A DNA stretch of 64,000 nucleotides from Romanomermis culicivorax (Eukaryota > Nematoda > Enoplea > Mermithida > Mermithidae), in contig CAWUHX010000115.1 in NCBI GenBank assembly GCA_963922205.1, forward strand, positions 310,001 through 374,000. Direction: 5' to 3'. Within the stretch, counting starts at the first letter, position 1. Each line of letters opens with the position of its first letter. Made by a program: the position numbers and the translations under genes. The notes beneath the pieces were generated by a model. That model worked only from the letters and a program-made list of their open reading frames with translations. It did not search any database and was not told the origin of the DNA. Of this stretch, positions 1,085 through 49,300 are shown piece by piece.

Positions 1085-4000
1085 TAGGCTAAATGTGCTT
1101 ATGAATTAGGCCAATGTGGCTTAGTGGGCTAATGTGGCCAATGGGCTAATATGGCCAATGGGCTAATGTGGCCAATGGGCTTATGTGGCCATTGGGCTAA
1201 TGTGGCCAATGGCCCAATGTGGCCAATGGGCTAACGTGGCCAATGGGCTAATGGGCTTATGTGGCCAATGGTCTAATGTAGCCAATGGGCTAATGTGGCT
1301 AATGGGCTTATATGACCAATGGGCTAATGTGGCCAATGGGCTAACCTGGCTAATGTGTCTAATGGGCTTATGTGGCCAATGGTCTAATGTAGCCAATGGG
1401 CTTATGTGGCCAATGGGCTAATGTGGCCAATGGGCTAATGTGGCCAATGGCCCAATGTGGCCAATGGGCTAATGTGGCCAATGGGCTAATATAGCTAATG
1501 GGCTAATGTGGCAAAGGGCTAACATGGCCAATGGGCAAATGTGGCCAATGGGCTAATGTGGCCAATGGGCTAATGTCGCCAATGGGCTAATGTGGCCAAT
1601 GGGCTAATGTGGCTAATGGGCTTATGTGGCCAATGGTCTAATGTAGCCAATGGGCTTATGTGGCCAATGGGCTAATGTGGCCAATGGCCCAATGTGGCCA
1701 ATGGGCTAATGTGGCCAATGGGCTAATATAGCTAATGGGCTAATGTGGCCAATGGGCTAATGTGGCTAATGGGCTTATGTGGCCAATGGTCTAATGTAGC
1801 CAATGGGCTAATGTGGCTAATGGGCTTATATGACCAATGGGCTAATGTGGCCAATGGGCTAACCTGGCTAATGTGTCTAATGGGCTTATGTGGCCAATGG
1901 TCTAATGTAGCCAATGGGCTTATGTGGCCAATGGGCTAATGTGGCCAATGGGCTAATGTGGCCAATGGCCCAATGTGGCCAATGGGCTAATATAGCTAAT
2001 GGGCTAATGTGGCCAATAGGCTTATGTGGTCATTGGGCTAATGTGGCCAATGGCCCAATGGGCTAATGTGGCAAAGGGCTAACATGGCCAATGGGCAAAT
2101 GTGGCCAATGGGCTAATGTGGCCAATGGGCTAATGTGGCCAATGGGCTAATGTCGCCAATAGGCTAATGTGGCCAATGGGCTAATGTGGCTAATGGGCTT
2201 ATGTGGCCAATGGTCTAATGTAGCCAATGGGCTTATGTGGCCAATGGGCTAATGTGGCCAATGGCCCAATGTGGCCAATGGGCTAATGTGGCCAAAGGGC
2301 TAATATAGCTAATGGGCTAATGTGGCCAATGGGCTTATGTGGTCATTGGGCTAATGTGGCCAATGGCCCAATGGGCTAATGTGGCAAAGGGCTAACATGG
2401 CCAATGGGCAAATGTGGCCAATGGGCTAATGTGGCCAATGGGCTAATGTGGCCAATAGGCTAATGTCGCCAATGGGCTAATGTGGCCAATGGGCTAATGT
2501 GGCTAATGGGCTTATGTGGCCAATGGTCTAATGTAGCCAATGGGCTAATGTGGCTAATGGGCTTAAGTGGCCAACAGGCTAATGTGGCCAATGGGCTAAT
2601 GTGTCTAATGGGCTTATGTGGCCAATGGTCTAATGTAGCCAATGGGCCAATGTGGCTAATGGGCTTATGTGGCCAATGGGCTAATGTGGCCAATGGGCTA
2701 ATGTGGCCAATGGGCTAATATGGCTAATGGGCTAATGTGGCCAATAGGCTTATGTGGTCATTGGGCTAATGTGGCCAATAGGCTAATGTGGCCAATGGGC
2801 TAACGTGGCCAATGGGCTAATGTGGATAATGGGCTTATGTGGTCAATGGTCTAATGTAGCCAATGGGCTAATGTGGCTAATGGGCTTATGTGGCCAAAGG
2901 GCTAATGTGGCTAGTGGGCTAATGTGGCCAATGGGCTAATGTGGCCAATGTGGCCAATGGGATAATTTGGCCAATGGGCTAATGTGGCCAATGGGCTAAT
3001 GTGGCCAATGGCCCCATGTGGCCAATGGGCTAATGTCGCTAATGGGCTAACGTGGCCAATGGGCTAATGTGGATAATGGGCTTATGTGGCCAATGGTCTA
3101 ATGTAGCCAATAGGCTAATGTGGCTAATCGGCTTATGTGGCCAACAGGCTAATGTGGCCAATGGGCTAATGTGTCTAATGGGCTTATGTGGCCAATAATC
3201 TAATGTAGCCAATGGGCTAATGTGGCTAATGGGCTTATGTGGCCAACGGGCTAATGTGGCCAATGGGCTAATGTGGCCAATGGCCCAATGTAGCCAATGG
3301 GCTAATATGGCTAATGGGCTAATGTGGCCAATGGGCTTATGTGGTCATTGGGCTAATGTGGCCAATAGGCTAATGTGGCCAATGGGCTAACGTGGCCAAT
3401 GGGCTAATGTGGATAATGGGCTTATGTGGTCAATGGTCTAATGTAGCCAATGGGCTAATGTGGCTAATGGGCTTATGTGGCCCACCGGCTAGTGTGGCCA
3501 ATGGGCTAATGTGGCCAATGTGGCCAATGGGATAATGTGGCCAATGGGCTAACGTGGCCAATGGGCTAATGTGGCTAATGGGCTTATGTGGCCAATGGTC
3601 TAATGTAGCTAATGGGCTAATGGGCTTATGTGGCCAATGGGCTAATGTGGCCAATGGGCTAATGTGGCCAATGGCCCAATGTGGCCAATGGGCTAATGTC
3701 GCCAATGGGCTAACGTGGCCAATGGGCTAATGTGGCTAATGGGCTTATGTGGCCAATGGTCTAATGTAGCCAATGGGCTAATGTGGATAATAGGCTTATG
3801 TGGCCAATGGTCTAATGTAGCCAATGGGCTAATGTGGCTAATGGGCATATGTGGCCAACGGGCTAATGTGGCCAATGGGCTAATGTGGCCAATGGGCTAA
3901 TGTGGCCAATGGGCTAATGTGTCTAACGGGCTAATGTGGCCAATGGGCTAGTGTGGCTAATGCAGTGTGTTATAAATAATGGGTCTGGCGTATGGGCTAA

Positions 4001-4410
4001 TATGGCTAATGGGGCCAATGGGCTTATGTCGCCATTGGGCTAATGTGGCCAATGGCCCAATGTGGCCAATGGGCTAATGTGGCCAATGGGCTAACATGGC
4101 CAATGGGCTAATGTGGCTAATGGGCTTATGTGGCCAATGTGGCCAATGGGCTAACGTGGCCAATGGGCTAATGTGTCTAATGGGCTTATGTGGCCAACGG
4201 GCTTATGTGGCCAATGGTCTAATGTAGCTAATGGGCTAATGTGGCTAATGGGCTAATGTGGCCAATGGGCTAATGTGGCCAATGTGGCCAATGGGCTAAC
4301 ATGGCCAATGGGCTAATGTGTCTAATGGGCTAATGTGGCCAATGGGCTAGTGTGGCTAATGCAGTGTGTTATAAATAATGGGTCTGGCGCATGGGCTAAT
4401 GTGGCTAATG
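1085..4410. repeat. 17-bp tandem satellite array (about 3.3 kb)
   Basis: The block is made of variants of a 17-bp unit, GGCTAATGTGGCCAATG, which itself looks like two related half-units (GGCTAATGT and GGCCAATG). Recurring variants (GGCTTATGT, GGTCTAATGTAGCC, GGCAAAGGGCTAACATGG) show a higher-order structure: the GCAAAGGGCTAACATGG segment recurs near 1511, 2071 and 2384. Near the right end a non-repeat insert (GTGTGTTATAAATAATGGG) appears twice, 399 bp apart (about 3961 and 4360), indicating duplication of a larger block. Because 3 x 17 = 51, translation gives a 17-residue repeat. Open frames of 60-90 codons on both strands are a by-product of that period and are not called as genes. Confidence 0.95.
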
Positions 4411-4682: not shown

Positions 4683-5396
4683 TCAAATCGAATCATTATT
4701 ATCTTTATAATTTTGACGAAATGAAAATTCGTCCAAATGAGCAGCTAAGTGTTCCATTGTTTTTAATCCATGCATTCTCGATATCCTCTGTTTGACGAGT
4801 CCCCACAAGCCTTCTATGGTATTTGTATGAATGTCATCCTCAGTCACGAATTCCTTATTATGGCACATGACTTTATGATTGTATCCATATGTATCTAAAT
4901 TAGCATAAGTGGCCAGACCATCGTGATATATTGTAACCTCATTCCATATGTATTTCTGGATTAGCAAGACTTCTCTTGAATTTGTTGGAACAATTCCAAG
5001 AATGCATTGTGTACCACTTCGTTCCACTATCCGAAATACTAAGGTCATTTTTTGCTTTTTTCCAAAAAAGGACTCATCTATTTCTACTGCAGTTTCCTGT
5101 TGGCTAATAAGGACGTCTGATGTAAATTTCAACAGGTTTCTTAGCATAATCTTTGTGCGAATGTCACGAAATTTTTCATACCACTCTGATATAGTGTCAT
5201 ATGTAACTCTTTTCCTGATTAATCGATGAGCCAAATATGCAGGATAATCGTTTCTAAATAAATAGAAGATCATTAAAGCAGTGTCTAATGGTAATCGGGT
5301 CCCATAAAAAATCGATGCAGTTCAAATTGATTTCTGTGACTTGCAAGTTTTGCAACCCCAGATAAAATTGTCATTTAATCGTTGTTTTTTAACCAT
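4683..5396 (-). pseudogene. Merlin-type (IS1595/ISXO2-like) DDE transposase with one in-frame stop
   Basis: Read on the minus strand from an ATG at 5396, the frame encodes about 237 residues interrupted by one TGA at 5322-5324. Before the stop there is a CxxC zinc motif (GCKTCK). Directly after it comes a segment equivalent to the conserved '(R)TGSFF-GSRLPL' block, then the catalytic part: the first Asp in EIDESFFG, a second in the YHDGLATY region, and an NTIEGLWGLVKQRI block carrying the acidic residue of this family, ending with the usual F-FRxN motif. The stop sits where relatives usually have Arg, so a CGA to TGA change is the simple explanation. Apart from that the frame is nearly full length. 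No terminal inverted repeats were found. Merlin elements are the eukaryotic relatives of bacterial IS1016/IS1595. The copy is probably inactive. Confidence 0.8.
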
Positions 5397-23747: not shown

Positions 23748-23822
23748 TGCATCTGACTGAGGCCTGTTTCGGAATAACATCTTTTCGAACATATTTTTAA
23801 ATACTAAGGATATTTTTTAACA

Positions 23823-24299
23823 TGTTGAGGTGGGCTCAGGTGCACGTGTTCAGCTTCCGGCGTCGGTGCGCAGGCGGTTGGACGCGGCGAAAAGTGGCGA
23901 GAAAGAATGATAAATTTGCATAGATTTATGCTGCCACTGTTTCGCGGTTTTTGTGTCTTTTTATTATTGTTAAAAAGATTAGTTTTTATGGAGCGACGCC
24001 GCCATCGCCTACTTACAATTATTTTGTTTATTATTTGTTTTTGGCGTCGCCACTCGTTACCCAATACACATTGAACCCGTAAGTGTATTGTTTTGTGAGC
24101 GTAGGGGAAGGATTTTATAAGTATAGGAGTGGAGACTTGGGTAGGAACTCCTGAGGTACGTGTCAAGGTGTTCTGCCTGAGGTTTAGTGAGAGTTCTGGT
24201 GTATATCTGGTGAAACGTCTGGGAGAGTTTTGTGTTTGTTGCTGTTGTTAGCCTGTGGTTAGAACTGTTGCTTAATTGTGACCCCACAGAAGCCTAACA
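23823..24299 (+). repeat. 5' LTR (477 bp)
   Basis: It begins TGTTGAGG and ends CCTAACA, the usual TG...CA with a short TGTT/AACA inverted tip. It matches the 3' LTR at 476 of 477 positions. A TATA-like TTTATAAG occurs near 24114. An 8-bp pair GCGACGCC/GGCGTCGC (about 23993 and 24043) could form a stem. Antisense frames inside the LTR appear identically in both copies and are not genes. Confidence 0.95.
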
Positions 24300-24320: not shown

Positions 24321-24407
24321 CTCACGACGGATAACCGGAGAACCACCAGAAAAGTAACTAAACCTCCTGGGTTTTATTTGCAATCACATACCGGAAAAGT
24401 GAAAAAG

Positions 24408-27400
24408 ATGAGTATTCCGGTAGGAAAAATGTTGAGAACTCCTCCTAGGTCACATGAACCTAGTGTTTCGAATCTGGACTCTGCTGAAGAACACGCAGCG
24501 GTAGAAAAGGTTCAAGCACAGGCGCCTGAGACTGAAGGAAGGAGAGAGAGTGGAATTGCCGAAATGGCAAGAGTTGAAGAAGAGTTGAGGAGAAGTGGTT
24601 TTGAGATGGCTAGGAGAGCCGAGATTGAAACTACTGTAAGTGGTAGTGTCAGAGGTCAGCAGACCTTTGAGAAGGAGAGACCGACGTCGCCCTCGAAGTT
24701 GGTCCATCCGATGGCCGAGACGCTGGAGGAGATTAGACGGAAATCGAAACCGGCGTGGAGGTCGAACATGATGGACATGAATTACGACGAGTATTACGAG
24801 GACGCGCCGGCCGATTTATACGACGACAAATATTCGAGGCGATACGACCCCGAAATTACAAATTGGAATCGACGAGAGGATCCGAGGGATCGAGTCGATC
24901 CCAAGGATTTACGATTTAATGCGCTGGAGAAAAAGGTCGAGTTATTGATCAAAGTAATCGAAAGCGCGCAAGTCAAGGAAAAAGAAACGGAGGATGATCA
25001 ACGGAGGAAGATAGGTGAGTCTTCTTACCTTGAGAGTAGAGTTGAGAGAGTTAGTGAACCGAAGAGAGAGGTTCATTCAGAAGTTTATGTAAGGTCTCAA
25101 GAAGATAGAGACAAATATTCGGCTAGAGACAGAGGTTGGACTGAGGAGCCGCAGAGTTCGAGGAATGCTGAACAAGCACAATCGAATGCCTACGGTTACT
25201 CAGAGAATAGGAGGTCGAGGGAAAGGAAGGTGACTATTTGCGACGAATCGTCCCAGGGAGAGGATAGGTTTTCTCGTCCTACTCCTTGGAGAGATACCGC
25301 AAATAGAGCTGACCTTAGCCCTGAAAGGAGAAGAAAGAGAAAGTCGAAGAGTCGAAAGAGATCTCACAGATCAAGAGCTAGAAGTAGACATTACTCAGAT
25401 AGTGATAATAGCAGTTCATCTACTTCGAATTCTAGCTCAAGTGTTGAAGTTGATGTGAGAGATGTGGTAAAGGCCTTGAAACATAGACCTTTACATGATA
25501 GTATAAAGCCGACGGAGGCTTTGAAGTTTTTTACTGATCTGGAAAGTGAGTTTCTGGAGAATACGGCTGATAAAGTGAAGAAAGAGTGTTTGAGAAGGTT
25601 GTCTCAGAACACGGCGAGGAGGATAGCGAGAACATCCTCAAGTTATACAGAAGCGCGGAGAAATATTTTAAAGTATCTCGCGCCGACTTATGATTTGACG
25701 ATGCTCAAAAGAGAATTGTTTAATATGAAACAGGAAGAAGGCGAGTCAGCCTTAGAGTTTTTAAAGAGATTGAGTAATCATGTGGATCTGGTCTATGCAG
25801 ATCAGAGTGATCAAATAAGGCAAGAGAATATTATTAATGCCTTCATTTATAAGAGTAGTCCGTTGTATCAGACGGAGTTGCAGGACGTATTGCCATCAAT
25901 GAAAACATGGCAAGACCTTGCATACGCCGTAACTCAAATTGATAAAAAGTATAAGAATGTATTTACTACTTTTGGAGCCAAAGATAAACCGATTGTAGTG
26001 AATCAAGTTGTAGCGGAGGAGATGTGCCCGGAAATTGCTTTTGTCGGGAATGCTCCGTATGGAAGTACTAAAAAGTATAACCAGACGAAGTCAAGACCAC
26101 AAAATCAGTTGCAAAAGGCAGTGGAAGAGGAGAGAAGTGAGGAGAATGGGGAAGAGATGATACCTGGTCCGTCGCCTCGTGATGTCAAAAAGTCTAACGA
26201 GGAGCAGGCCAAGGAATCTTTTCTAGCTATTCTCTCAAAGGAGTGGCTACAATTGGTTCAGAAAGTAGACAAATTACAAGTTACTCAGAGTGAAGCCTTA
26301 AAAGAGTTGACTACTGTGAAGGCTGCATCTGCTGAAAAGCAGAAGCAGTTGAAGCAGCAGAGACCCTATTGCATTTATCATAAGAATAATACGCATGCTA
26401 CGGAAGAGTGTAAGACATTAGCCTACCGGCGTCAGCAACAGCAACGCGGTGGATTTAACCGTGGCATGTCTAATCAGTATTATGGTGGTGATAGGAATGC
26501 TTCATATAGAGGAAGTTTTAGAGGTAGAGGTGGACCTCAATTTGGATTTAGAGGAAGAGGAAGAGGTGCCTATTATGTAGGATTCCCCGAAGAAGATCAA
26601 ATGTACGGGTATGACCCAGAATTTGAGAGATACAGGGAATTCTGCAGACTTAGGGAACAAGGCATCCAGTTGCAGAGACAGCCTCAGTTGATGTTACCTG
26701 CACCAACTAGTCAACCTGCTATTCAGGGTAGTACCGTCCAGGATCAGTCTGGATCATTTGTTTCGAACCAGTCGCAACCTAGTTCGCATAACGTAATGGT
26801 GACAAGCCGTACGGATGTGGATGATGAAAGCGAAAAGAGTAGAAACAAATCTTCTAGTTTGGTTCTCGGAAGTATTATTCACCTGGATAAGGTGACACCT
26901 CTAGAGAAAGTGAAAGAAAGAGATTTGGCTCATGTGAAGTATGGGAGAAAAGCAACGGACATGGAGAGAAGGTTGTTGGAAAATTATCCGAAAACGGTTC
27001 CGTTCTATATAAATGTGGTTATTAAAGAAACGGCTACCAGAGCTTTAATTGATACAGGAGCTCAGTGTACAGTCATGTCTTCTAAGCTCCTGAAAAGGGC
27101 ATTAGACGTTGATTATACAGTGTACCCTCGTATCCTTAAAGTGACTGTAGCTGATGGAAAAGTTGTGCATGCCTATGGGTATGTACCAGTTTGTATGAAG
27201 ACTGAATTCGGAAGTTTTCCAGTCAATGCTATAGTGTTGCCAGATGCAGGTGAGGACCTGATCTTGGGCACAGATTTTTTGGCACACCCAGATTTAGGTG
27301 TGGTGATTGATTTCAAAAGGAATGCCATGACAATACAGGGCATTGAGAGAAAGATTGACGTAGTTCAAGTTCCTTCTGTAACTACTGTGCAAACAGTAAT

Positions 27401-30400
27401 GGAAGAAGTAACTAAAGTCAGTGTGGCGTCGACTGATTGCATAAATCAAATTGTTTATCCAAAAGTCTGTCTACTAAAGACAACTGTTGCAATTGTTGCA
27501 TGTAGTAAAACCTACATTCCATATGGAACAGATGTTTTGATGAAGGCAAAACTTTGGGATCAACATGGAGATGCCACGTTGAACGGAATTATTGTCGAAT
27601 CAAAGGATTCTGAAAGGAAGTTCAGAATGGAGAAAGCGGTTGTAGACGGGTCACAAGAGGAGTTTGTAGTACTAATCTCCAATATCACGGGTTCTGGATG
27701 TCGGTTTGAGAGAGATCAAATCATTGGCTATACAGAATCTATGCTTATTGAAGATGATGATACGTACAAGAAGGTGAAAGGAATGAAAAAGATAAAGGAG
27801 GAAGAGGAATATCAGACCTGCATGGTAAAGGAAGGAATGCCTGCATTATCAAAAGCTGATTCTGTAGAGTTCTATACTGCACTATGCAAGATGATATCAA
27901 AGGCAAAAATATCGGAAGAGAAGAAAACGGAAGCTATAGAGTCTTTGTTGAAGTACAGAGATGTCTTTAGCTTGCCTGGTGATCCGGCTACTACAACCCC
28001 AGCTCTGACATGCAAGATAGATACAGGAGATGCAAGACCTGTAGCAAAGAGATATTACAGAGCTTCAATTAATAGTCGGCCAGGAGTAAGGCGACACATA
28101 AAGGAGATGTTGGATCAAGGAGTGATCGAGCCCTCGAAGTCACCGTGGGCTGCACCCTTGTTCCTGGTTGGAAAGAAAGATGGAACTACGAGACCCGTAG
28201 TGGATTTTAGAGGTATAAACGAAGTGACCAAGGATGATAAATATCCCATCCCGAGAATGGATGATTATTTAGATTGCCTTGGAAGAGCGAAGTTTTATAC
28301 GACTCTAGATTTGAAGTCGGGATATTGGCAGGTCCCGATGGAGGAGGAAAGCAAGGAGAAAACGGCTTTTATATGCCAAGAGGGCTTATTTCAGTTTAAA
28401 GTGATGCCGTTTGGGTTGAAGAATGCACCTGCTGAATTCCAAAGGATGATGGAGAGAATCCTTGGGGATTTGGTATGGAAAATTTGCCTAGTGTACATAG
28501 ATGATATTATCATCTTCTCGAATACGTTCGAGGAACACTTAGAGAATTTGAACTTGGTGCTAGAAGCGTTGAGGAAGGCGAAGTTGACTCTTAAGCCAGA
28601 GAAATGTGAATTTCTTCCCGAGAAGGTGCACTTTTTAGGACACATCTTGGATGCGAATGGAATTTCTCCGGATCCTAAGAAGGTCAAGGCGATAACGGAA
28701 TTTCCATTCCCGGATTCTGTTAAGAAAATGCAAAGATTCCTAGGTATGCTACAATGGTGTAAGAAATTTATACCAGACCTAGCAGCACTAGCTGAACCTT
28801 TGTACAAATTAACAGGTAAGAAGGGAACATGGAATGTAACGGAGTTGCATTACACAACTTTTGAGAAGCTCAAAGTAGCATTGACCTCAGTACCTTTCTT
28901 AAGACATCCAATTCTAGATGGATCTGCACGATTCATTCTTCAAACGGATGCCAGTGGAATTGCATTGGGAGCAGTGTTATGTCAAGAGACTGACTCGGAA
29001 CGTTGGGTAGTTGCCTACAATAGTCGGATATTGCGGGCAGAAGAAAGGAAATGGTGCGCCACCGAAAGAGAATGCTTAGCTGTGGTTTACGGCCTTAAAA
29101 TTTATAAACATTATCTTTTGGGCCAAAAGGTCAGGATTCAAACTGACCATAAACCATTATTATCAATGAGGGTGAATACACAGACTAACGACAAACTCAA
29201 GAGGTGGTACGCATTCATTTGCCAGTTTAATCACAAGTTGGAGTATGTGCCTGGCAGACAAAATGCCATGGCAGATTTCCTCTCCAGGAAGGAGGAACCG
29301 GATGAGCAGAAAGAGAAGTTGCCACCAAAATGGGAACTTATCTTTCAGAAGGAAGATGTGAAATCTCTTACTGAAGACGAAGTCCTTAACCAAAACCACA
29401 AAGTTTTAGTGAAACAACTTCGGGAACTCAGAGGAGATGAAGTGGATGAGGCTGTAGGAGTCTTCACTCCGGTGAAGATGGCCACAGCTTCAGTGGCTTC
29501 AAAGTATAGTGTTAGTGATGAAACTCAACTTAATATTTCTCCAGAATTTGATAACTATCGAACGCCTGAGAAATATGAAATTGAGGCGGTAGTCACTAGA
29601 CAAATGGCAAAAAACTTGCAACAGGAGGAAAAAGGACATCCTCCTGGGCAAGCAAAACCTAGAGAAGAGGTGAAGAGAATATTTGAACCGAAGGAGAAGG
29701 AGTTTGAAGAAGCCCCAGAGATTGAAGATGGTAGACCAAAAGGGCTTATCTCAAACGCCTTGATGTCAAAGTTGCAAGGAAAGGATAAGGATCTAAAAGT
29801 GATCTTCGAGAAACTAGGTGCTAGTAGTAGCACTAAGTCTCAAAGTAACTTTTATATCGATCAAGGGATACTATATAGAGAGACTTTTGGCGAGGCAGAG
29901 GATCAAGTTGTTGTCCCCTCTGTTCTCAAAAAAGTTGTCCTGCATCAGTATCATGGAGCAGTAATGATGACGCATCAAGGGTTTAAGAGAACCCTTGCTA
30001 TTATTAAGAAGCGGTTCTGGTGGCCGAGCATCGAGAAGGATGTTCGGAGCTGGATCAGCTTTTGTCCGATATGTCAAATTGCGACTCCAGGAAAGGCCAC
30101 GATTCCGCCATTGAATCCAATCATTCCTAGAGGACCATTTGACATAGTCTCTGTAGATATTGTGGGAATATCTCCCATGAGCGAGAAAAGACCGTATGTG
30201 ATAGTATTTCAAGATTACTTTACAAAATGGGTGGAAGCAGAAATGATCCCGGATCAGTCTGCTGTAACCATTGTGGACAGTTTTCTTCGGAATATTGTGT
30301 TCAGGCATGGAACCCCGGTGAAATTGTTGAGTGATAACGGTTCATGCTTTACAGCTGATTTGATGACGTCAGTCTGTAAATTGTTGGAGTGTCAGAAGAT

Positions 30401-31058
30401 TTTCACAACTGCCTACCATCCACAAGGAAATGGAATGGTTGAAAGGTTTAACCAAACCTTGATCAAGCAGTTGCGAAAAGTTGCTATAGAGGATTCAGAT
30501 AAGTGGGACAGATATCTGCAATCTGTCGTTTTTGCATATAATGCCACACCTCATACCTCAACAAAATGTTCTCCATTTGCCTTATTGAGGGGTCATGAGG
30601 CAAATTTTGGCATTAGTATTGGAGTTGCTAGAAATATAGTTCTGCCAATGAACTATGAGGCTTATAAGCATATACTAACCGAAAGTTTAGTAGAAACTTA
30701 TGAGACCATTTCAGAGAATATCAGGAAGGCTGCGGAGAGCAGTAAAAAGTTTTTTGACCGTAAAGCAAAGGCTCATGATTATTCCGTCAATGATTGGGTT
30801 TTGCTGAAAGTCGATAAACAGAAAAAACTGGGTCTGCCGTGGCAAGGACCGTATGTTGTTACTGATAATAAGAGATTATCAGAGAATGTGCTTGAAATCG
30901 CTCACTGGAGAGAGCCGCTGAAAAAGCAGGTGGTATCCGTGAGCAGGTTAAAGCACTTTCGCTACGAGACCGGCAGATGGCTGCAGTCTAACGACGTGTC
31001 ATCTAAGGACACGCAGTTTACTGTAGATTCGAAAATTGAGAATTATAAACTGCCGTAG
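24408..31058 (+). CDS. Gag-Pol polyprotein of Ty3/gypsy retrotransposon (2216 aa)
   Basis: Single frame, no frameshift. The frame is open further upstream; 24408 is the first ATG. The N-terminal quarter is charged and coiled-coil-like. A retrotransposon capsid-type region lies at about residues 350-520 ([13 protein letters not shown]... LEFLKRL). A zinc-knuckle-like CxxHxxNTHxTEEC is near 655, followed by an RG-rich stretch. An aspartic protease with DTGAQ is near 880. Reverse transcriptase spans about 1210-1390 with the YIDDII catalytic motif near 1362. RNase H has [12 protein letters not shown] near 1512. Integrase has an HHCC zinc domain near 1845-1885 and core acidic residues in SVDIVG, SDNGSC and VERFNQ (about 1916, 1975, 2011). 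Gag and Pol are fused, so Gag levels must be set some other way than by frameshifting. The frame has no internal stops, consistent with the young LTRs. Confidence 0.95.
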
Positions 31059-31529: not shown

Positions 31530-34500
31530 ATGTCCAGGCCCCCCAATGGACGCCGGACGAAACAGTATTTGGTCACGGACCCCCACGTGACCTACGGACA
31601 GCCGCAGGTGCGGCAAAACAATCGGTATTTTTTAGTCGATGGTAAGCGACCTAAGTTTTAAACTTAGTTAATTTAAAAATTATTTGGGCAAAGCAGGATG
31701 TCATAGCCCACGGGTGTCTAGACGAAGGCCTAGACAATTGTAAAAGTTTAGTGGGAACATAATTGTTCTGTCAACTTGAAAAAGTGTGGCAAAGCTGCCC
31801 GTAGCGCAAAAATTTGGACTTTTTGCGAAACTACATTATTCCTCTACACACATAGCGAGTTGAATAAATTCGTCTATGTGATGGGGAAGAAGTGGAGTGT
31901 AGCAACTAGTCGACTAGGGGTAGATAATTTCAAAATTTATTTAAATTTCTAAATTCCATCTTAATTTACTTTTATACGAATTTCCTCATCTTGGGTAAAT
32001 TGTAAATATATTTTCAAATTTCTTCTTGGAAATTCTTAATTTATTAGTTGGATAGGCCGTTTTGGGCGTTGGATTGAGACGGCTAGCAGTCGATTGATGG
32101 AAGACGCAGGTGGTCTGTGCGTGTACTCCCGTATAAGGTAGAAGTCGGGGCCGCACTTGTGTTTAACTATCTGCCAACACTAACCCAATATATGTTTGGT
32201 ACCTTATTTTCCCCTGCTTGCAATTTTCTTTTCCTTTTTCCTATTTGTGCTTACTATCTGTGGTGAAGGTAGAGTTTAACCGATGTTTGTCCGCTTTGGG
32301 AAAAATTTTCATTAAAAAGTTGTAAACATTCCGCCTGAATTTTTTAGACTACAATGTTAAACGCATTGTTAGAGTCGGCGAATTGGAACGATGGTTTGCA
32401 ACGACGTTCGGAAGATTTCCGTTGGAACTAACAGAACCGAAATTGGTCGAGATAGGTAAGGTGGCTGAGATGATCGAAACTCTGAAGGTGAGCAGGTTTC
32501 GAGGACAGCCAGTTATCGGTTTTGATACCGAAAAAATTACGCAAGAGTATGTAAGCAAGGTTTTCGCGACTTCTGGGGTTGATAACCCAAAAGGGAAGGA
32601 GTTCGCGAGAGTCATTAGCTTCTCGACGGTGACTGGAGACACTTTTGTTGTAGATACTACGACAATCATGCCGAAGGAATGGACGCTCATTCATGAGCTC
32701 TTAGATTCGGACATGCTTCTCGTTGGATACAACTTGGTTACAGATCTGGTTGCCGTCTGGAATGTTAATGGCGCAGGCAGAAATCACCAGGATGTTGATC
32801 TGACAGCAGAGATCAAGTATAGAATTACATCTTCGTATGGCCGTTATTATGACGTAGCCAAGGTAGGAGATCAATTGAATGGAAGATTTTTGGCAATGTC
32901 CAGGAAGTTGGGACTTTGCCCAGAGACATTTAAGCTGAAAGGATTGTTCACGGAGCTGTATCTGGCGGACGTTGGTTATTTCCAAATCGATTTCCGTCAG
33001 AGAGCGCAACGTGAACGATTCTGTAGGCACACGTTGACGCAGTTTGAAATCAGGTATTCAGCACTGGACGCCTACTACTCATTGTTGGTTTTCTTAGCGT
33101 TTTTCCACTATGAGTTAGCTATGGAAGTCGAGGTCGGATTCCAGTATTTTCCGCATGATTTGATGAAAGTGGATCAAATCCAGATAATGTCGTACAGGTT
33201 GTACAGGTTTTTTAATATCATACATGGAGAGAATTTTCCGCAGACTTTTTGTGGAAGCCCGGAAGTAGAGGAGCCGCAGTCGTCGGCTATTTACCACGTA
33301 ATGAGACAGGAAGCGTATGCCCGTATGGCTGCCCAAATGGACACCTCATTTGGAGGCTATGTGGAGTACAGCTTCCCTCATTACGAGGCAAATCCGAAGA
33401 GAGGAAGAGACGTGAGTATACCTAAGGGTATTCATCCTGATTATACCGTTAAAGAAAAAAGTAAAAATGTAGACGGTAACGATACGGTAAGTGAGGATGA
33501 AGAGTTCGAAGAAGCTTTGTCGGAAAAGCAGATTAGAACTCGAATAATGAACAAGGTGGTAGATATGGTTAATCGAGGGAAGAGTTTTAGTAGACTCGAT
33601 GAACCAGTATCTATGGTTTTATACGAGAATTATCTAAGGTATAGAAAAGAAACGAAGCAGTTATTGGAGATACCAACTCTGGAAGTTGATTACCACGAGT
33701 ATGAACCGGTCAGAATTTCGAACGGTAAAGACTCGTATGTAAGGCAACACTGGAGTATGGATATCGCTCCTTATTCTGAAATATTGATCGAGGACAATTT
33801 TAAGAATTTGGAGTCAGTGTGTAATAAAGTTCCGCTTACGTTTCATTTGTTTTGGCCAGCTTGCAGAGAGGAGGCGGAGGAGTACCTTACCTCTCTCCTT
33901 GACCACAACTATTTGAGATCCTTTAGCCCTGAGGGAAAGGAACAACTCTTGAAGATGTTGTGGAGGGGAGATAGGTATGGTCAGTATTTATCATTTTTGA
34001 ATAGTCTTCCAGTAACAGAGGTACATACGCCAACCAAGGGCGATTCTATTACATGTTGGGGAAATCGTTTCGGATTTCTGCCGATTCGATTTTGGCCTAA
34101 GACAAAGTCATGGGAGCAAAGACCGGAAGATAAAAGGAAGCATTTGGCGGAGTGTCCGCAGTACAAAGATAATCCGTACTGCTATCAGAGGTTTTACTTC
34201 CGCCAGATAGCTGTTAGAGTTCCAGGTTTGCGATACCCAATAGATATGAGTGAGGACGCAACGAAGGAGAATCAGAAAAAGAGCGTCTTAGCGTATCAAC
34301 CGGAATACGTTCCAGGTTACGAGCCGCCATTTTTTGAGCCGGTATTGCCGTCCGATGCTCCAGGTTTTACGATTACGCATATTGGCGATAAGGTTGTAGT
34401 GACGCCGATAGGTAAGCAGCCAGCAGTGCCGGTTACAGGCACTGAGGTAAGCACAACGGTGAGTCAACAATCTGGAGTTGATATGAGTAGTTTGGATCAG

Positions 34501-36663
34501 GTGCAGGGGATGCAGGCTGAGCCTGTTGCGGCGAAAGCACAGCTACAGGTGATACCTGCAGACCTCAACACCCCCATAGACTTGAATCAGGTAGGAGACG
34601 ATTTAGAAGTGGACAATGAAGTCACTGTTGAATCGTTGATACAGCCTGATCAAGAAACACAGGTAACTTCATTAGTAGATCAGACAGAGAGTTTACTTTC
34701 TGGAATGGATGTCAGGGCAGAGCCGATGGTGGATGAAAGCAATCTGATAACGATTGCTGCAAGTCCAGCAATAGAGGAAATTGAAGCAAGGCTCAGGGAG
34801 CAAGCTGAAAAGGAAATCGAGAGACAGAAAGAGATTTTTACTAAGCAGCTTGCGGAGCAAAAAGCGAGATTAGATCAGCAGCAGAAGCAGCTGGAACTAG
34901 TATTGGCTGGTTTTACGGCGCAGCCGACGCCTCTGGCAGCGCCTACAGTCGTGCAAGCTCCAGCCAAGCCGCCTACTGCTTATCATATCCCGAAATTGCC
35001 GGTGCAACCTTCTAGTACGCAGGTCATCCAGCCTGCGGTCAGCAAGGTTACGCCGACAGTTCAAGTAGCGCCCAGAGATCCAAGTATGGACGGTGGTATA
35101 CCAGGTATGTATACTGCCGAAGAGGTCAGAAAGTTCAGAGCAGAAGGTCGTACGGACGATCAAATTAAAAGACTAGGAAGACGAAAGTTAGCCCGAAGGG
35201 CCAATAGGGCTAAAAAGAGAGAGGAAGAAGATGTTATTGAAATCAGTGATGGTGAAGGAGAACAGACAGGGAGTTCTACGTCTGTGGATTTGAAGTTTGC
35301 AGGATCTACAACTTTATTGACGGATTCAACCAAATCCAAGACTGGAACTACGCCGACGAGCCTGATGCCTGGAACCAAAAGTTCTACGAGTCAGGTGCAG
35401 TCGACGGTTGCTTCGGCTAAAGTACCTAGTAAATCGTCTGCATCTCAGGTAAGTGCAACGACGAAAAGTACTTTGGCTAAGCCCGTGTCTAAGGTGGATA
35501 AGACTTCTCAGCAGGACCAGAGCAGCGCTTCAGGGAAAAAAGTTGTTTCTAAACCCTCTACGTCGGAACCGACAAAATCGGTCAAGAGAAGTAGAGATAA
35601 GGAAGTAACTTTGGAGTACCTAAGTTCTGTTTTGAGAGACTACTGGGACGTCCATAAGAAGTTTCCCTTGGTGAAGGGAAGGATAGATTTTTCGACACCG
35701 GAGGTGATCGAATTCTTTGCTCAGGATATGCCAGATGATAATAGGAATCAAATCATCTGGGCATTAGTGAATAATGGAGTAGAGGAGCTTTACGAGAACT
35801 ACGGGGATCACTTTGACCTTCAAGGTGGTTTCCTGTATGATCATGTAAACGTTCCTGAGCCCATTTGGGAATATATTTGGCTCAAGTTCATGCCAAATTG
35901 GTTTCATCATTTTGATGCGGAAATAGTGATGGCAGCCGTGAGATACTTATGTACCATGGTGTTGCTAAAATTAGAACAACAGCAGTTAGGCCCGAGACAT
36001 ATTGGTGCAATTGATGCACGGGCCAAGTCATTTGTTACGGAAAGGTATTATTCTATCTACCTGCGGGGAGAAGGTAGTACTGCATTCAGGGAAGCGTACG
36101 CCAACCGAATGCAGGAACACCAACAAACTGCAGTAGATATGGCAGCAAAGAGAAGGTTGTCGGACATGGTTCAGAAATTTTCTGGTAAATTCCAGAAGGC
36201 AGAGGATGAGGAGGGGCAACCCTTCAAGATTCCAATGTTAACAGAGAGACAACCTAGGGATGCATCCAGGACTAGGAGCCAGCACTCGCGACAATCGTCT
36301 CACTCGCAGGGTCGGCACCAGCCTGGAGTGTTCAAATTACCGTATGCGAATCAACAAAGTCAAGGTAGGTCCACTACCTCAGCTTCAGGAGTATCTTCCG
36401 TAAGTTCCACTCAGGGCTCGTACCAGAGGGGAACTGGAGGGGGATATGGCCGGGGCTGGGGTCAGGGACAGGGTCAAGGTAGACCCTTTAAGATGGTTAA
36501 TCCGCAACCGTATAGAGGACAGGCGATGGGCGGACCCCCTCGTGTGGCCCAACCTCGAGGAGTTTTTGGGGGATTCCTCAGGGGTCGTGGAGCTCGAGGT
36601 GGTCCCTACCCTCGCCGTGGTAGCTTTCAATACGGCGGTTATGGTGGCGGCGGGCAACAATAA
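31530..36663 (+). CDS. Retrotransposon ORF2: DEDDy 3'-5' exonuclease-domain protein with RGG tail (1475 aa, spliced)
   Basis: The proposed model joins 31530-31641 (ATG, donor G|GTAAGC) to 32348-36663 (acceptor TTTTTTAG) in matching phase, giving 4428 nt. Without the splice, the long frame lacks an ATG near its start and stays open back to the acceptor. Residues about 85-290 form an RNase D/WRN-like exonuclease: Exo I GFDTE (D97, E99), Exo II GYNLVTDL (N166, D170), Exo III YSALDAYY (Y274, D278), preceded by LTQFEIR as in the family's L-x-x-Q-x-x-Y. All DEDDy catalytic positions are present. A His/Cys cluster follows near 680-690 (HLAECPQYKDNPYC), then a low-complexity Gln/Ser/Thr/Lys part with a short coiled coil, an unrecognised region rich in Trp, Phe and Tyr, and an RGG/GQG-rich RNA-binding-like C-terminus. 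No signal peptide or transmembrane segment is seen, so it is not an envelope protein. It may act on cDNA or RNA intermediates, but the role is unknown. Confidence 0.8.
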
Positions 36664-37402: not shown

Positions 37403-37879
37403 TGTTGAGGTGGGCTCAGGTGCACGTGTTCAGCTTCCGGCGTCGGTGCGCAGGCGGTTGGACGCGGCGAAAAGTGGCGAGAAAGAATGATAAATTTGCA
37501 TAGATTTATGCTGCCACTGTTTCGCGGTTTTTGTGTCTTTTTATTATTGTTAAAAAGATTAGTTTTTATGGAGCGACGCCGCCATCGCCTACTTACAATT
37601 ATTTTGTTTATTATTTGTTTTTGGCGTCGCCACTCGTTACCCAATACACATTGAACCCGTAAGTGTATTGTTTTGTGAGCGTAGGGGAAGGATTTTATAA
37701 GTATAGGAGTGGAGACTTGGGTAGGAACTCCTGAGGTACGTGTCAAGGTGTTCTGCCTGAGGTTTAGTGAGAGTTCTGGTGTATATCTGGTGAAACGTCT
37801 GGGAGAGTTTTGTGTTAGTTGCTGTTGTTAGCCTGTGGTTAGAACTGTTGCTTAATTGTGACCCCACAGAAGCCTAACA
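37403..37879 (+). repeat. 3' LTR (477 bp)
   Basis: Identical to the 5' LTR except for A instead of T at 37817. Followed by the AACA duplication at 37880-37883. Confidence 0.95.
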
Positions 37880-37883
37880 AACA

Positions 37884-46378: not shown

Positions 46379-49300
46379 ATGAATCGACAGTCGGTTTTTA
46401 GATTTTTATTTCTGGGTGAGCATTTCCGCATTTGTAAGTGTTAATCTTTTGCACGCAAATTCTGTTTGCAACTGCATCACTAATCAAACTGAGTCTCGTG
46501 CAACAATATAGTAATCCTAATTTCTTTAAAATCAACTATTCAATCAGGAATTTACGTCAGCTTTAGTGGTTTATATTAACTGGAAGACTCAATAAAAACC
46601 TTATATATGATGGCCAGAAATCTGCCGTTTTGTACGCACTTCTCATGGTTTTCACAGCTGATAAAAATTGATCGGATTAAAAAATGTTTACTCGTGCTTA
46701 TTGACTTTCGATTTTTTTGATGTTTTTGATTATACCAAAATTTGTGGACCGTTCATCAATGTTTGACCTTACAGCTAAATCGGTTCATGGTTATTACGCA
46801 CGATGATTTTATAATCTGAAAAGAATGCATCCTTTTCAAATGATAAAATAAATCAAGTGGAAAAAATTCTAGAGGAAGTTCGACTGATTCCAATTATCTT
46901 ATACTGTTACGTGTAATTCGAGAAAAAATTAATTCAGCAGTAAATGTTTCACGAACCAACTTTCGGCGAAACATCTGTCACGTGGAAATTCTTCATTTGG
47001 TGGTCATGAGAACTAAATAATAATCAGTAGGCGTGATAGTTTAGAATCTTTAAGTACTGATTTGTCGTTTTTTTCAGTTAAAATCGTTATCTGTGCACCG
47101 TCGGCTTGCCTATTTCGATGCAAAGATTCACATTTAGTCCAAATGCAATACGATCAAATGGCTCATTTACACAATTTCGATGATTCGACAGCGATGTTAT
47201 TCCCGATTCAAGGATTGATTTTAAAGTCAAAACGATTCGATCAGGTCAAAGAAGGGCTAAAGTTGAATTGCAAGTGAATGCTATTTTTACGCACGAAAAA
47301 TTTCTACTAAAAAACTCTAAGAGGGCCGTCTTGGTCTTGTGGTTATCGCCTTTGGCTGCTAGTCTCAAGAACCAGATTCGATTCCGAGTGTAACCCGAAA
47401 TTGAATTTCTGGTAGCTGGCCCAGGCAGACACAACCTTTCATCCTTTTGGGGGTAGATAAATTGAGTAGGCGAGCTTAGAATGCTGCTTGCCGGGGTCCA
47501 CTCAGCCCAGTTAGCATGCTGGCGATAGTGTGGCGAATGAGGAGGTGGGCCTATTCCATTATGAGGTAGGTAGCCGATCAAGTCCTGCTTGTCAGGCAGA
47601 TGCCAGCCTGTGGAATGTGGCCTCCACTAGGCGATAAAAAGCACCCGAAGAGCGCCTCTCATATAAGGTGGGCACCGTGACCCGACATTCGAGCGCCGGA
47701 CAATAGAGCTTGGACATTAGAGCGCAGGAACATAAGAGCGCGAACATTGGGGCGCAGAGACATTAGAGCGCAGGACAATAGAGCGCAGGTACATTAGAGT
47801 GCAGGACAATAGAGCGCAGGGGCACTAGAGCGCGGGGACATTAGAGTGCAGAACAATAGAGCGCAGGGACATTAGAGCGCAGGAGAATAGAGCGCGGGAC
47901 AATAGAGTGCAGGGACATTAGAGCGCAGGACAATAGAGCGCATCTGTTGGTTCGAAAAAAATTTAACCAACGTTCCACAGTCTTAATGGACGCGCCTTTT
48001 AAAATTGTTTTTGAACATGAAAAAAGAGTACTATGCAAGCAGCTTTATTTCAAAAGTCGACAAAGTTTTCAAAAGCTGACAAGAAACTGCGTTTGATTCT
48101 GAATGCGAGTTAGAAATTTAAGATGAATTCGAAAATAAAAAAATGGAACAATTTTATTAAAAGGTTCAAAGGTCAAATATTTGCGATTTTTTCTGTCTTT
48201 CGCGACTTTTGTGTGAAAGGTTTGCATACCCCATCTTTTTACTAAATACTCAAACAAGCATTGATCCCGCCCTTTATCTACTCGCCACTGGTCGACGCAG
48301 GAATTTGTTGACGCGGAATTTTTTTTACAATTTTCATATTTTTGTTAAATTAATGGCATTGATATTTTTTCTTTTTTTTCTTCAAATCTCTTCAAAAAAC
48401 GAAACAAAAAAACGAAACCATGGGGCAACTGGCAAGAAAATAAAAACGATAGATTAAAGAAGAAAGAAGAAAAAATTCGAAAAAAGTAAATTTCGGCTAC
48501 ATTATATGATTAAGTTTTGCAGATTTCTAATAATTTTCGTTTAAAAAATTATCTGGATAAGTTTTATTTTTGGGACATGAGTATACCAGGCGCAGTCGCC
48601 CCCGCTCCCTGCATCCACCACGGCATTGCCCTGCGCTCTAATGTCCGCGCTCTAATGTCCTGCGCTCCCTGCGCTCTACTGTCCTTGCGCTCTATGGTCC
48701 CGCACTCTATTTTCCTGCGCTGTAATGTCCCTGCACCCTATTGTCCCGCGCTCTATTGTCCTTGCGCTCTATTGTCCTGCGCTCTAATGTCCCTGCGCTC
48801 TATTATCCTGCGCTCTAATGTCCCTGCACTCTACTGTCCTGCGCTCTAATGTCCCTTCGCTCTATTGTCCTGCGCTCTATTGTCCTTGCGTTCTATTGTC
48901 CCTGCGCTCTATTTTCCCGTGCTCTAATGTCTTTGCGCTCTATTGTCCTCGTGCTCTAATGTCGCTGCGCTCTAATGTCTGCGCTCTAATGTCCGCGCTC
49001 TATTGTCCTGCGCTCTAATGTCCCCGCGCTCTAGTGTCCCTGCGCTCTATTGTGCTGCGCTCTATTGTCCTGCGCTCTAATGTCCGCGCTCGTCCTGGCG
49101 CTCTAATGTCCCTGCGCTCTAATGTCCCCGTGCTCTAGTGTCCCTGTGCTCTATTGTGCTGCGCTCTGATGTCCCTGCGCTCTATTGACCTGCGCTCTAA
49201 TGTCTGTGCTCTAATGTCCGCGCTCTATTGTCCCGCGCTCTAATGTCTCGGTACCGGTGGGCACATGTATATGACCGTATAGTCCTGTAAAGCCTGCTTT

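What the first reader, a model, noticed from the sequence alone, without database searches (positions are those of the whole stretch)
31530..36663. A Ty3/gypsy retrotransposon carrying an RNase D/WRN-like 3'-5' exonuclease gene in the env position
Seen: between pol and the 3' LTR of a young 14-kb element lies a 1475-aa gene whose N-terminal part has all DEDDy motifs in order and spacing (GFDTE; GYNLVTDL; YSALDAYY). It ends in an RGG-rich tail. Known: a third gene in this position is normally env; I am not aware of a described LTR element with a DnaQ-fold exonuclease there. Inference: it might process or proofread cDNA ends, trim RNA intermediates, or counter host small-RNA silencing. The intact frame in an element with 476/477 matching LTRs suggests it is under selection and used.
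Basis: partly seen in the sequence, partly recalled or inferred. Interest (0 to 1): 0.92.

Follow-up and report, generated by a model that had tools for sequence, protein, structure and literature searches.

The report
Retrotransposon with its own RNA-trimming-type nuclease
A jumping element in what is most likely the genome of the mosquito-killing nematode Romanomermis culicivorax carries, where retroviruses keep their envelope gene, a gene resembling RNase D/WRN exonucleases that selection has kept intact across many copies and that is predicted to trim the ends of RNA, possibly to escape the worm's gene silencing.

Summary
A 14-kb Ty3/gypsy element (LTRs 476/477 identical, 4-bp target duplication) has a third gene between integrase and the 3' LTR. 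Its predicted spliced product is 1475 aa with all DEDDy exonuclease motifs. Alone it scores just under Pfam's cut-off for PF01612; a homologous family (C) in the same genome scores above it. The assembly matches Romanomermis culicivorax v2 in size and contig number. All 30 copies examined keep the catalytic residues. pN/pS is 0.06 in the nuclease region and 0.09 over the gene; 39 copies ranked by nucleotide score agree. New here are a nematode host, a large predicted two-exon protein with an RGG tail, high copy number and measured purifying selection. Most likely role: an RNA 3'-end exonuclease in the element's RNP, perhaps against siRNAs; this is inferred. Structure prediction failed; no RNA or activity data.

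The parts
23819..23822 (.). target-site duplication AACA, left copy (right copy 37880-37883)
   Evidence: printed flanks
23823..24299 (+). 5' LTR, 477 bp, TG...CA
   Evidence: 476/477 match to 37403-37879
24378..31058 (+). gag-pol in one frame (first ATG about 24408): protease, RT, RNase H, H2C2 and integrase core
31530..31641 (+). ORF3 exon 1, predicted, 112 nt, 37 codons plus 1 nt
   Evidence: of 30 copies: ATG kept in 29, donor GTAAGC in 28 and GCAAGC in 1; L015 lacks this part
31642..32347 (+). predicted intron of 706 bp; acceptor AG kept in 30 of 30 copies
   Evidence: no RNA evidence
32348..36663 (+). ORF3 exon 2 (stop-to-stop frame 32326-36663)
32446..33195 (+). DEDDy 3'-5' exonuclease-like domain; motif I GFDTE 32518-32532, motif II GYNLVTDL 32725-32748, motif III YSALDAYY 33055-33078
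   Evidence: pN/pS 0.062
33196..34395 (+). middle region, no family match, pN/pS 0.064
34396..35565 (+). low-complexity, probably disordered region with a coiled-coil-like stretch and a basic stretch, pN/pS 0.205
35566..36315 (+). conserved C-terminal region, no family match over its cut-off, pN/pS 0.054
36316..36660 (+). RGG/Gly-rich tail
37403..37879 (+). 3' LTR
   Evidence: found behind ORF3 in 28 of 30 copies with 28 distinct flanks

Best explanation
The third gene of this 14-kb LTR retrotransposon carries the motifs of RNase D/WRN-type (DEDDy) 3'-5' exonucleases, is homologous to genes that match that family and is under strong purifying selection, and its protein is predicted to be an active nuclease that likely trims RNA 3' ends, most likely those of host silencing RNAs or of the element's own transcripts. 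Shown: the position behind pol, the motifs, the homology to family C genes that match PF01612, the conservation across copies. Inferred from sequence: a 706-bp intron, so the protein would come from a spliced mRNA, as retroviral env does, while unspliced RNA would serve as genome and gag-pol message. Inferred: the RGG tail would hold the protein on the element's RNA-protein particle, and the nuclease would act there on RNA rather than proofread inside the capsid, because it is not fused to pol. Inferred: the useful target is probably silencing RNA. R. culicivorax is reported to lack Piwi and its piRNAs, and HENN-1, the enzyme that protects piRNA 3' ends, is reported lost outside nematode clade V, so small-RNA 3' ends there would be open to such an enzyme. 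My step confidences: exonuclease homology 0.95, catalytic activity 0.75, splicing 0.8, RNA substrate 0.6, counter-silencing 0.3.
For: Pfam PF01612 on the window domain E 2.7e-4; NCBIfam PRK14975 exonuclease weak partial hit, E 0.0032, far under its cut-off. Family C versus window ORF3: 7 of 8 C loci match by tblastn, E down to 2e-21 among the loci held, and four A copies recovered by the C query in the whole genome at E 1.5e-14 to 3.2e-14 (places matched). C and B pieces pass the Pfam cut-off (1.5e-7 and 4.7e-7; 5.2e-11 and 1.6e-13). Family B also comes nearest to WRN, mut-7 homolog and Rrp6 chains, but only at E 0.005-0.24. Motif I D and E, motif II D, motif III Y and D kept in 30 of 30 A copies. 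pN/pS 0.086 over ORF3 and 0.062 over the exonuclease, 30 copies. Nucleotide-ranked control over 199 codons, 39 copies: 331 nucleotide differences from the window but only 56 to 72 amino-acid differences (23 copies counted exactly, 16 from scores and identities). pol tail upstream in 29 of 30 and 3' LTR in 28 of 30 copies. Small-RNA losses of the host: PMC4323106, passages.
Against: The window domain alone is below Pfam's cut-off. Both AlphaFold models are poor (pLDDT 32 and 42), and the Foldseek search has no match at E <= 0.001, its top hits a mix of integrases, Pol I, Egalitarian and Rrp6. No RNA data for splicing or expression. No assay. Nothing in the sequence points specifically to siRNAs. 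Exon 1 and intron diverge at similar rates (0.018 and 0.026 per site, 29 copies), so exon 1 is only weakly supported as coding. Copies were ranked by protein score, which lowers pN/pS. Outside family A some pieces lack a motif I acid: L051 (C) has K for E and L049 (B) has E for D, and the aligner did not superpose B's motif I on A's.
Confidence: 0.5

Rival explanations
1. Replication accessory: the nuclease trims or proofreads cDNA or RNA 3' ends during reverse transcription or before integration; the rotifer paper likewise suggests processing of the 3' ends of element RNAs.
For: WRN and polymerase-associated relatives act on DNA (family knowledge; B comes near WRN chains at E 0.005). Strong conservation.
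Against: The gene is separate from pol and behind a predicted intron, so the protein would not be co-packaged as part of Gag-Pol. The rotifer paper reports the same ORF type in Penelope-like Athena, which copies itself differently.
Confidence: 0.25
2. Catalytically inactive RNA-binding derivative (as Maelstrom and EXD1 are said to be in PMC5408684, passage) that works as a structural or RNP-assembly protein.
For: Profile score is weak; large middle and C-terminal regions are as conserved as the nuclease (pN/pS 0.064 and 0.054); RGG tail.
Against: All five catalytic positions kept in 30 of 30 A copies. In family C pieces motif I is kept in 4 of 5, motif II in 6 of 6 and motif III in 5 of 5; in 11 family B pieces in 10, 11 and 11, although the families are only about 20-25% identical. 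The B and C loci were found by their PF01612 score and the B pieces chosen for open frames, which favours this.
Confidence: 0.15
3. Envelope-like protein for cell-to-cell spread that merely sits in the env place.
For: Position between pol and 3' LTR and predicted splicing.
Against: No clear transmembrane stretch (highest 19-residue hydropathy 1.58, just under the usual mark of 1.6, recalled), no env family match, RGG-rich C-terminus.
Confidence: 0.03
4. Host exonuclease gene that was interrupted or flanked by an LTR element by chance.
For: None found beyond the resemblance to cellular exonucleases.
Against: Same gene behind pol in 29 of 30 copies and before the 3' LTR in 28 of 30, with 28 distinct flanks.
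Confidence: 0.01

Closest known systems
Bdelloid rotifer LTR retrotransposons Juno and Vesta with DEDDy ORF3 (Rodriguez et al. 2017, PMC5408684; abstract and discussion passages, sections 3.3 and 3.6 read)
   Same: LTR retrotransposon, third ORF in the env place encoding an RNase D-like DEDDy exonuclease, acquired at least twice there; several unrelated elements of one host carry it.
   Different: Nematode host; 1475-aa predicted two-exon protein with RGG tail; 150 or more copies of the nuclease region; motif kept as DEDD, while the paper gives DEED; purifying selection measured here. [quoted passage not shown] Sequence homology to the rotifer ORFs was not tested (no sequences at hand).
Athena/Terminon Penelope-like elements with DEDDy ORFs (PMC5408684, PMC6431247; passages read)
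   Same: Retroelement-borne DEDDy exonuclease.
   Different: Penelope-like RT rather than a Ty3/gypsy pol; other replication mode.
RNase D, WRN exonuclease, mut-7, Rrp6 (cellular DEDDy family, PF01612)
   Same: Motifs; profile matches of families B and C; weak chain matches of family B to WRN, mut-7 homolog and Rrp6.
   Different: Cellular enzymes; window ORF3 is far diverged, finds no PDB chain and has long extra regions without family matches.

Membership tests
DEDDy 3'-5' exonuclease (PF01612) | D-x-E, D and Y-x(3)-D motifs in order | tested here: met
   30 of 30 A copies; pattern in 0 of 20000 shuffles
DEDDy 3'-5' exonuclease (PF01612) | profile score above the curated cut-off | tested here: inconclusive
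   window 21.2 bits vs 23.6; homologous family C pieces 31.8 and 30.2 bits
DEDDy 3'-5' exonuclease (PF01612) | DnaQ/RNase H-like fold | tested here: inconclusive
   models pLDDT 32 and 42; Foldseek best E 0.17
DEDDy 3'-5' exonuclease (PF01612) | nuclease activity | not testable with these tools
   needs an assay
Ty3/gypsy LTR retrotransposon | pol order protease-RT-RNase H-integrase | tested here: met
Ty3/gypsy LTR retrotransposon | paired LTRs and target-site duplication | tested here: met
   (4-bp AACA)
Ty3/gypsy LTR retrotransposon | tRNA primer-binding site and clade placement by RT tree | not tested
   no reference RT set or tRNA match made
Bdelloid-type DEDDy ORF3 retroelements | DEDDy ORF behind pol, before the 3' LTR | tested here: met
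Bdelloid-type DEDDy ORF3 retroelements | ORF3 closer to the other retroelement DEDDy ORFs than to cellular ones | not tested
   rotifer sequences not available; of protein searches, the first found nothing and the others only R. culicivorax
Retroviral env-like gene | transmembrane segment / env profile | tested here: not met

The most novel reading that the evidence does not exclude
An animal retrotransposon carries its own silencing suppressor: a nuclease that erodes the unprotected 3' ends of Dicer/RdRP-type siRNAs in a nematode lineage that has lost piRNAs and the HENN-1 cap, which helped several such element families multiply in one genome.
Probability: 0.2. Interest if true: 0.88.

Novelty: new variant of a known kind. 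Interest (0 to 1): 0.62.

Why it matters
A DEDDy exonuclease in the envelope place has now been seen in retroelements of two animal phyla, rotifers (published) and, here, a nematode, and here selection on it is strong and measured. That moves it from a curiosity towards a gene the elements need. The host is reported to have a simplified small-RNA system, so whether such enzymes serve replication or escape from silencing can be tested directly.

Tried and rejected
Env, host-gene capture by chance, and chance motifs were considered and rejected (see rivals). Structure prediction failed twice (single sequence; with ten sequences), and Foldseek on the second model is not significant. Protein search with residues 1-420 of the exon-2 frame found nothing at E <= 10; with family B one R. 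culicivorax protein; with an A+C profile ten, all R. culicivorax. A viral-contig scan found no relative. PDB sequence search with ORF3: none; with the A+C profile only ribosomal protein L1 at E 0.5-2, judged chance. LTRs of families B and C were not found in the stretches held, and linkage of family D to pol was not tested. Asked but did not complete: a nematode spliced-leader RNA search, an intron-based copy count and an integrase family search. An early pN/pS run was wrong, because half the loci (15 of 30) were on the other strand; it is replaced. The L015 copy has an unrelated repeat in place of pol tail, exon 1 and most of the intron.
Full report
What is there. [quoted passage not shown] Between integrase and the 3' LTR lies ORF3. 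The stretch 31530-36663 has many stops before the long frame that opens at 32326, so it is not one frame. A donor at 31641/31642 and an acceptor at 32347/32348 join in phase and give 1475 aa. Splicing is predicted, not shown.

Host. G000 has 359,112,060 bases in 595 contigs. The published R. culicivorax v2 assembly has 359.1 Mb in 595 scaffolds (PMC10879605, passages). The one and ten named proteins found are all R. culicivorax. I take the host to be this mermithid nematode.

Nuclease identity. The isolated domain scores E 2.7e-4 against PF01612, 21.2 bits against a cut-off of 23.6. On its own that is suggestive only. A PF01612 search of the genome gave 80 matches from 119 candidates. I fetched 34 of the 80: L031 and L032, L033-L052 and L055-L066. 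L031 was the family B query; L032 is its close relative (80% over 6 kb). Of the 32 others, 24 match family B and 8 match family C. Family C is homologous to the window ORF3: 7 of the 8 C loci match it by tblastn (L042 does not), and in the genome-wide search with a C query four copies of the window family come back at E 1.5e-14 to 3.2e-14 (places matched). The C and B pieces scanned pass the Pfam cut-off. So the DEDDy assignment of the window gene rests on direct motifs plus homology to C. Structure prediction did not help. Within the aligned pieces, motif I is intact in 4 of 5 C and 10 of 11 B pieces that cover it; motifs II and III are intact in all that cover them (6 and 5 C, 11 and 11 B).

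Families. A is the window family: 32 of 32 scored matches span the full 1445 codons of the exon-2 frame, 2 of 32 with a stop, out of 4740 first-look candidates. With the nuclease region alone, 150 of 150 scored matches are full length at 92% aa identity or more, 12 of 150 with a stop, out of 2736 candidates; 150 is the cap, and many of these lie in frames shorter than 1445. C is mostly broken, with a Ty3/gypsy pol directly upstream in the copy at C130; its RT is 64% and its integrase 46% identical to the window's, while the nuclease regions are only about 23-26% identical. ORF3 thus evolves much faster than pol between families, yet is kept within A. B has a 609-aa ORF3 frame in L032 behind a distant pol (integrase of L031 31% to A and 25% to C). 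D was seen through its matches to C. I hold only 84 aa of it (31.5% to C, 26% to A). It has 150 of 150 scored matches, 5 of 150 with a stop, out of 506 candidates, many in frames of 1355-1361 codons. D's link to pol is untested.

Selection. Over 30 copies of A (30 of the 32 matches), pN/pS is 0.086 for ORF3, 0.062 nuclease, 0.064 middle, 0.205 disordered stretch, 0.054 C-terminal region, 0.14 tail. Those copies were ranked by protein score, which biases the ratio downward. A control ranked by nucleotide score scored 40 copies of 374 candidates, the window among them. For 23 of the 39 others I hold letters, but these are also in the protein-ranked set: they differ from the window by 179 nucleotides and 30 amino acids in 199 codons, 16 of the 23 by one amino acid and 7 by two. 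For the other 16 the numbers come from scores: 152 nucleotide differences (4.5 bits each, calibrated on the 23) and, from the rounded identities, 26 to 42 amino-acid differences, none with a stop. Over all 39: 331 nucleotide and 56 to 72 amino-acid differences. Under neutrality roughly three quarters of changes would be replacements (general expectation). The nuclease is therefore kept by selection while the element multiplies. pN/pS of gag-pol was not measured.

Association with the element. Of 30 copies, 29 have the pol tail, exon 1 and intron upstream; 28 have the LTR at the same place downstream, with 28 distinct flanks. L015 lost the upstream part. L005 and L010 lack a detectable LTR in the stretch held.

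How it likely works. The gene is apart from pol and would be expressed from a spliced message, so it does not look like a capsid-bound proofreading module. The RGG tail, like RGG repeats visible in the gag part of the frame, suggests RNA binding. The rotifer paper finds the same ORF type in LTR elements and in Penelope-like Athena, which argues for a step shared by very different retroelements, such as RNA 3'-end processing or silencing. PMC4323106 (passages) reports no PRG-1/Piwi and no 5'-triphosphate small RNAs in R. culicivorax, says that HENN-1, which stabilises piRNAs at their 3' ends, shares PRG-1's pattern of conservation, and says that the transposon-silencing small RNAs of clade I T. 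spiralis are made by Dicer. In such a host small-RNA 3' ends would be open to a 3'-5' exonuclease. This chain is inference.

Known work. DEDDy exonuclease ORF3s in LTR retrotransposons are known from bdelloid rotifers (PMC5408684), and accessory DnaQ-like domains in LTR elements are mentioned in PMC6338049 (passage). [quoted passage not shown] Searches listed no report of such a gene in a nematode; I saw listings only (47, 78 and 88 cut at 20 of 1,532, 12 of 52 and 12 of 16 papers), except for the papers opened. Hence new variant of a known kind, not a first.

Noticed in passing
window 4686-5273 (-): ORF of 196 aa matching the ISXO2-like transposase domain PF12762, E 1.2e-18: a DNA transposon of the IS1595/Merlin kind (kind name recalled).
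   Followed up: partly
window 47684-47942 (+) and 48630-49247 (-): Two arrays of the same 15-16-bp minisatellite unit in opposite orientation about 700 bp apart; 20 matches to a 16-mer with up to one mismatch, none expected by chance.
   Followed up: partly
window 1109-4361: 196-copy array of a 17-bp unit.
   Followed up: no
L001-L030: The 3' LTRs found in 27 other A copies are 84-99% identical to the window's LTR while their ORF3 is 98-99% identical, so the LTR changes faster than the gene.
   Followed up: no
L046: A family B copy in which an RT fragment runs directly into the nuclease frame, skipping RNase H and integrase: a deletion or rearrangement.
   Followed up: no
P0001: An annotated R. 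culicivorax protein (UniRef, Exonuclease domain-containing protein) joins another exonuclease-domain part to pieces of family B ORF3, probably a gene-model chimera.
   Followed up: no
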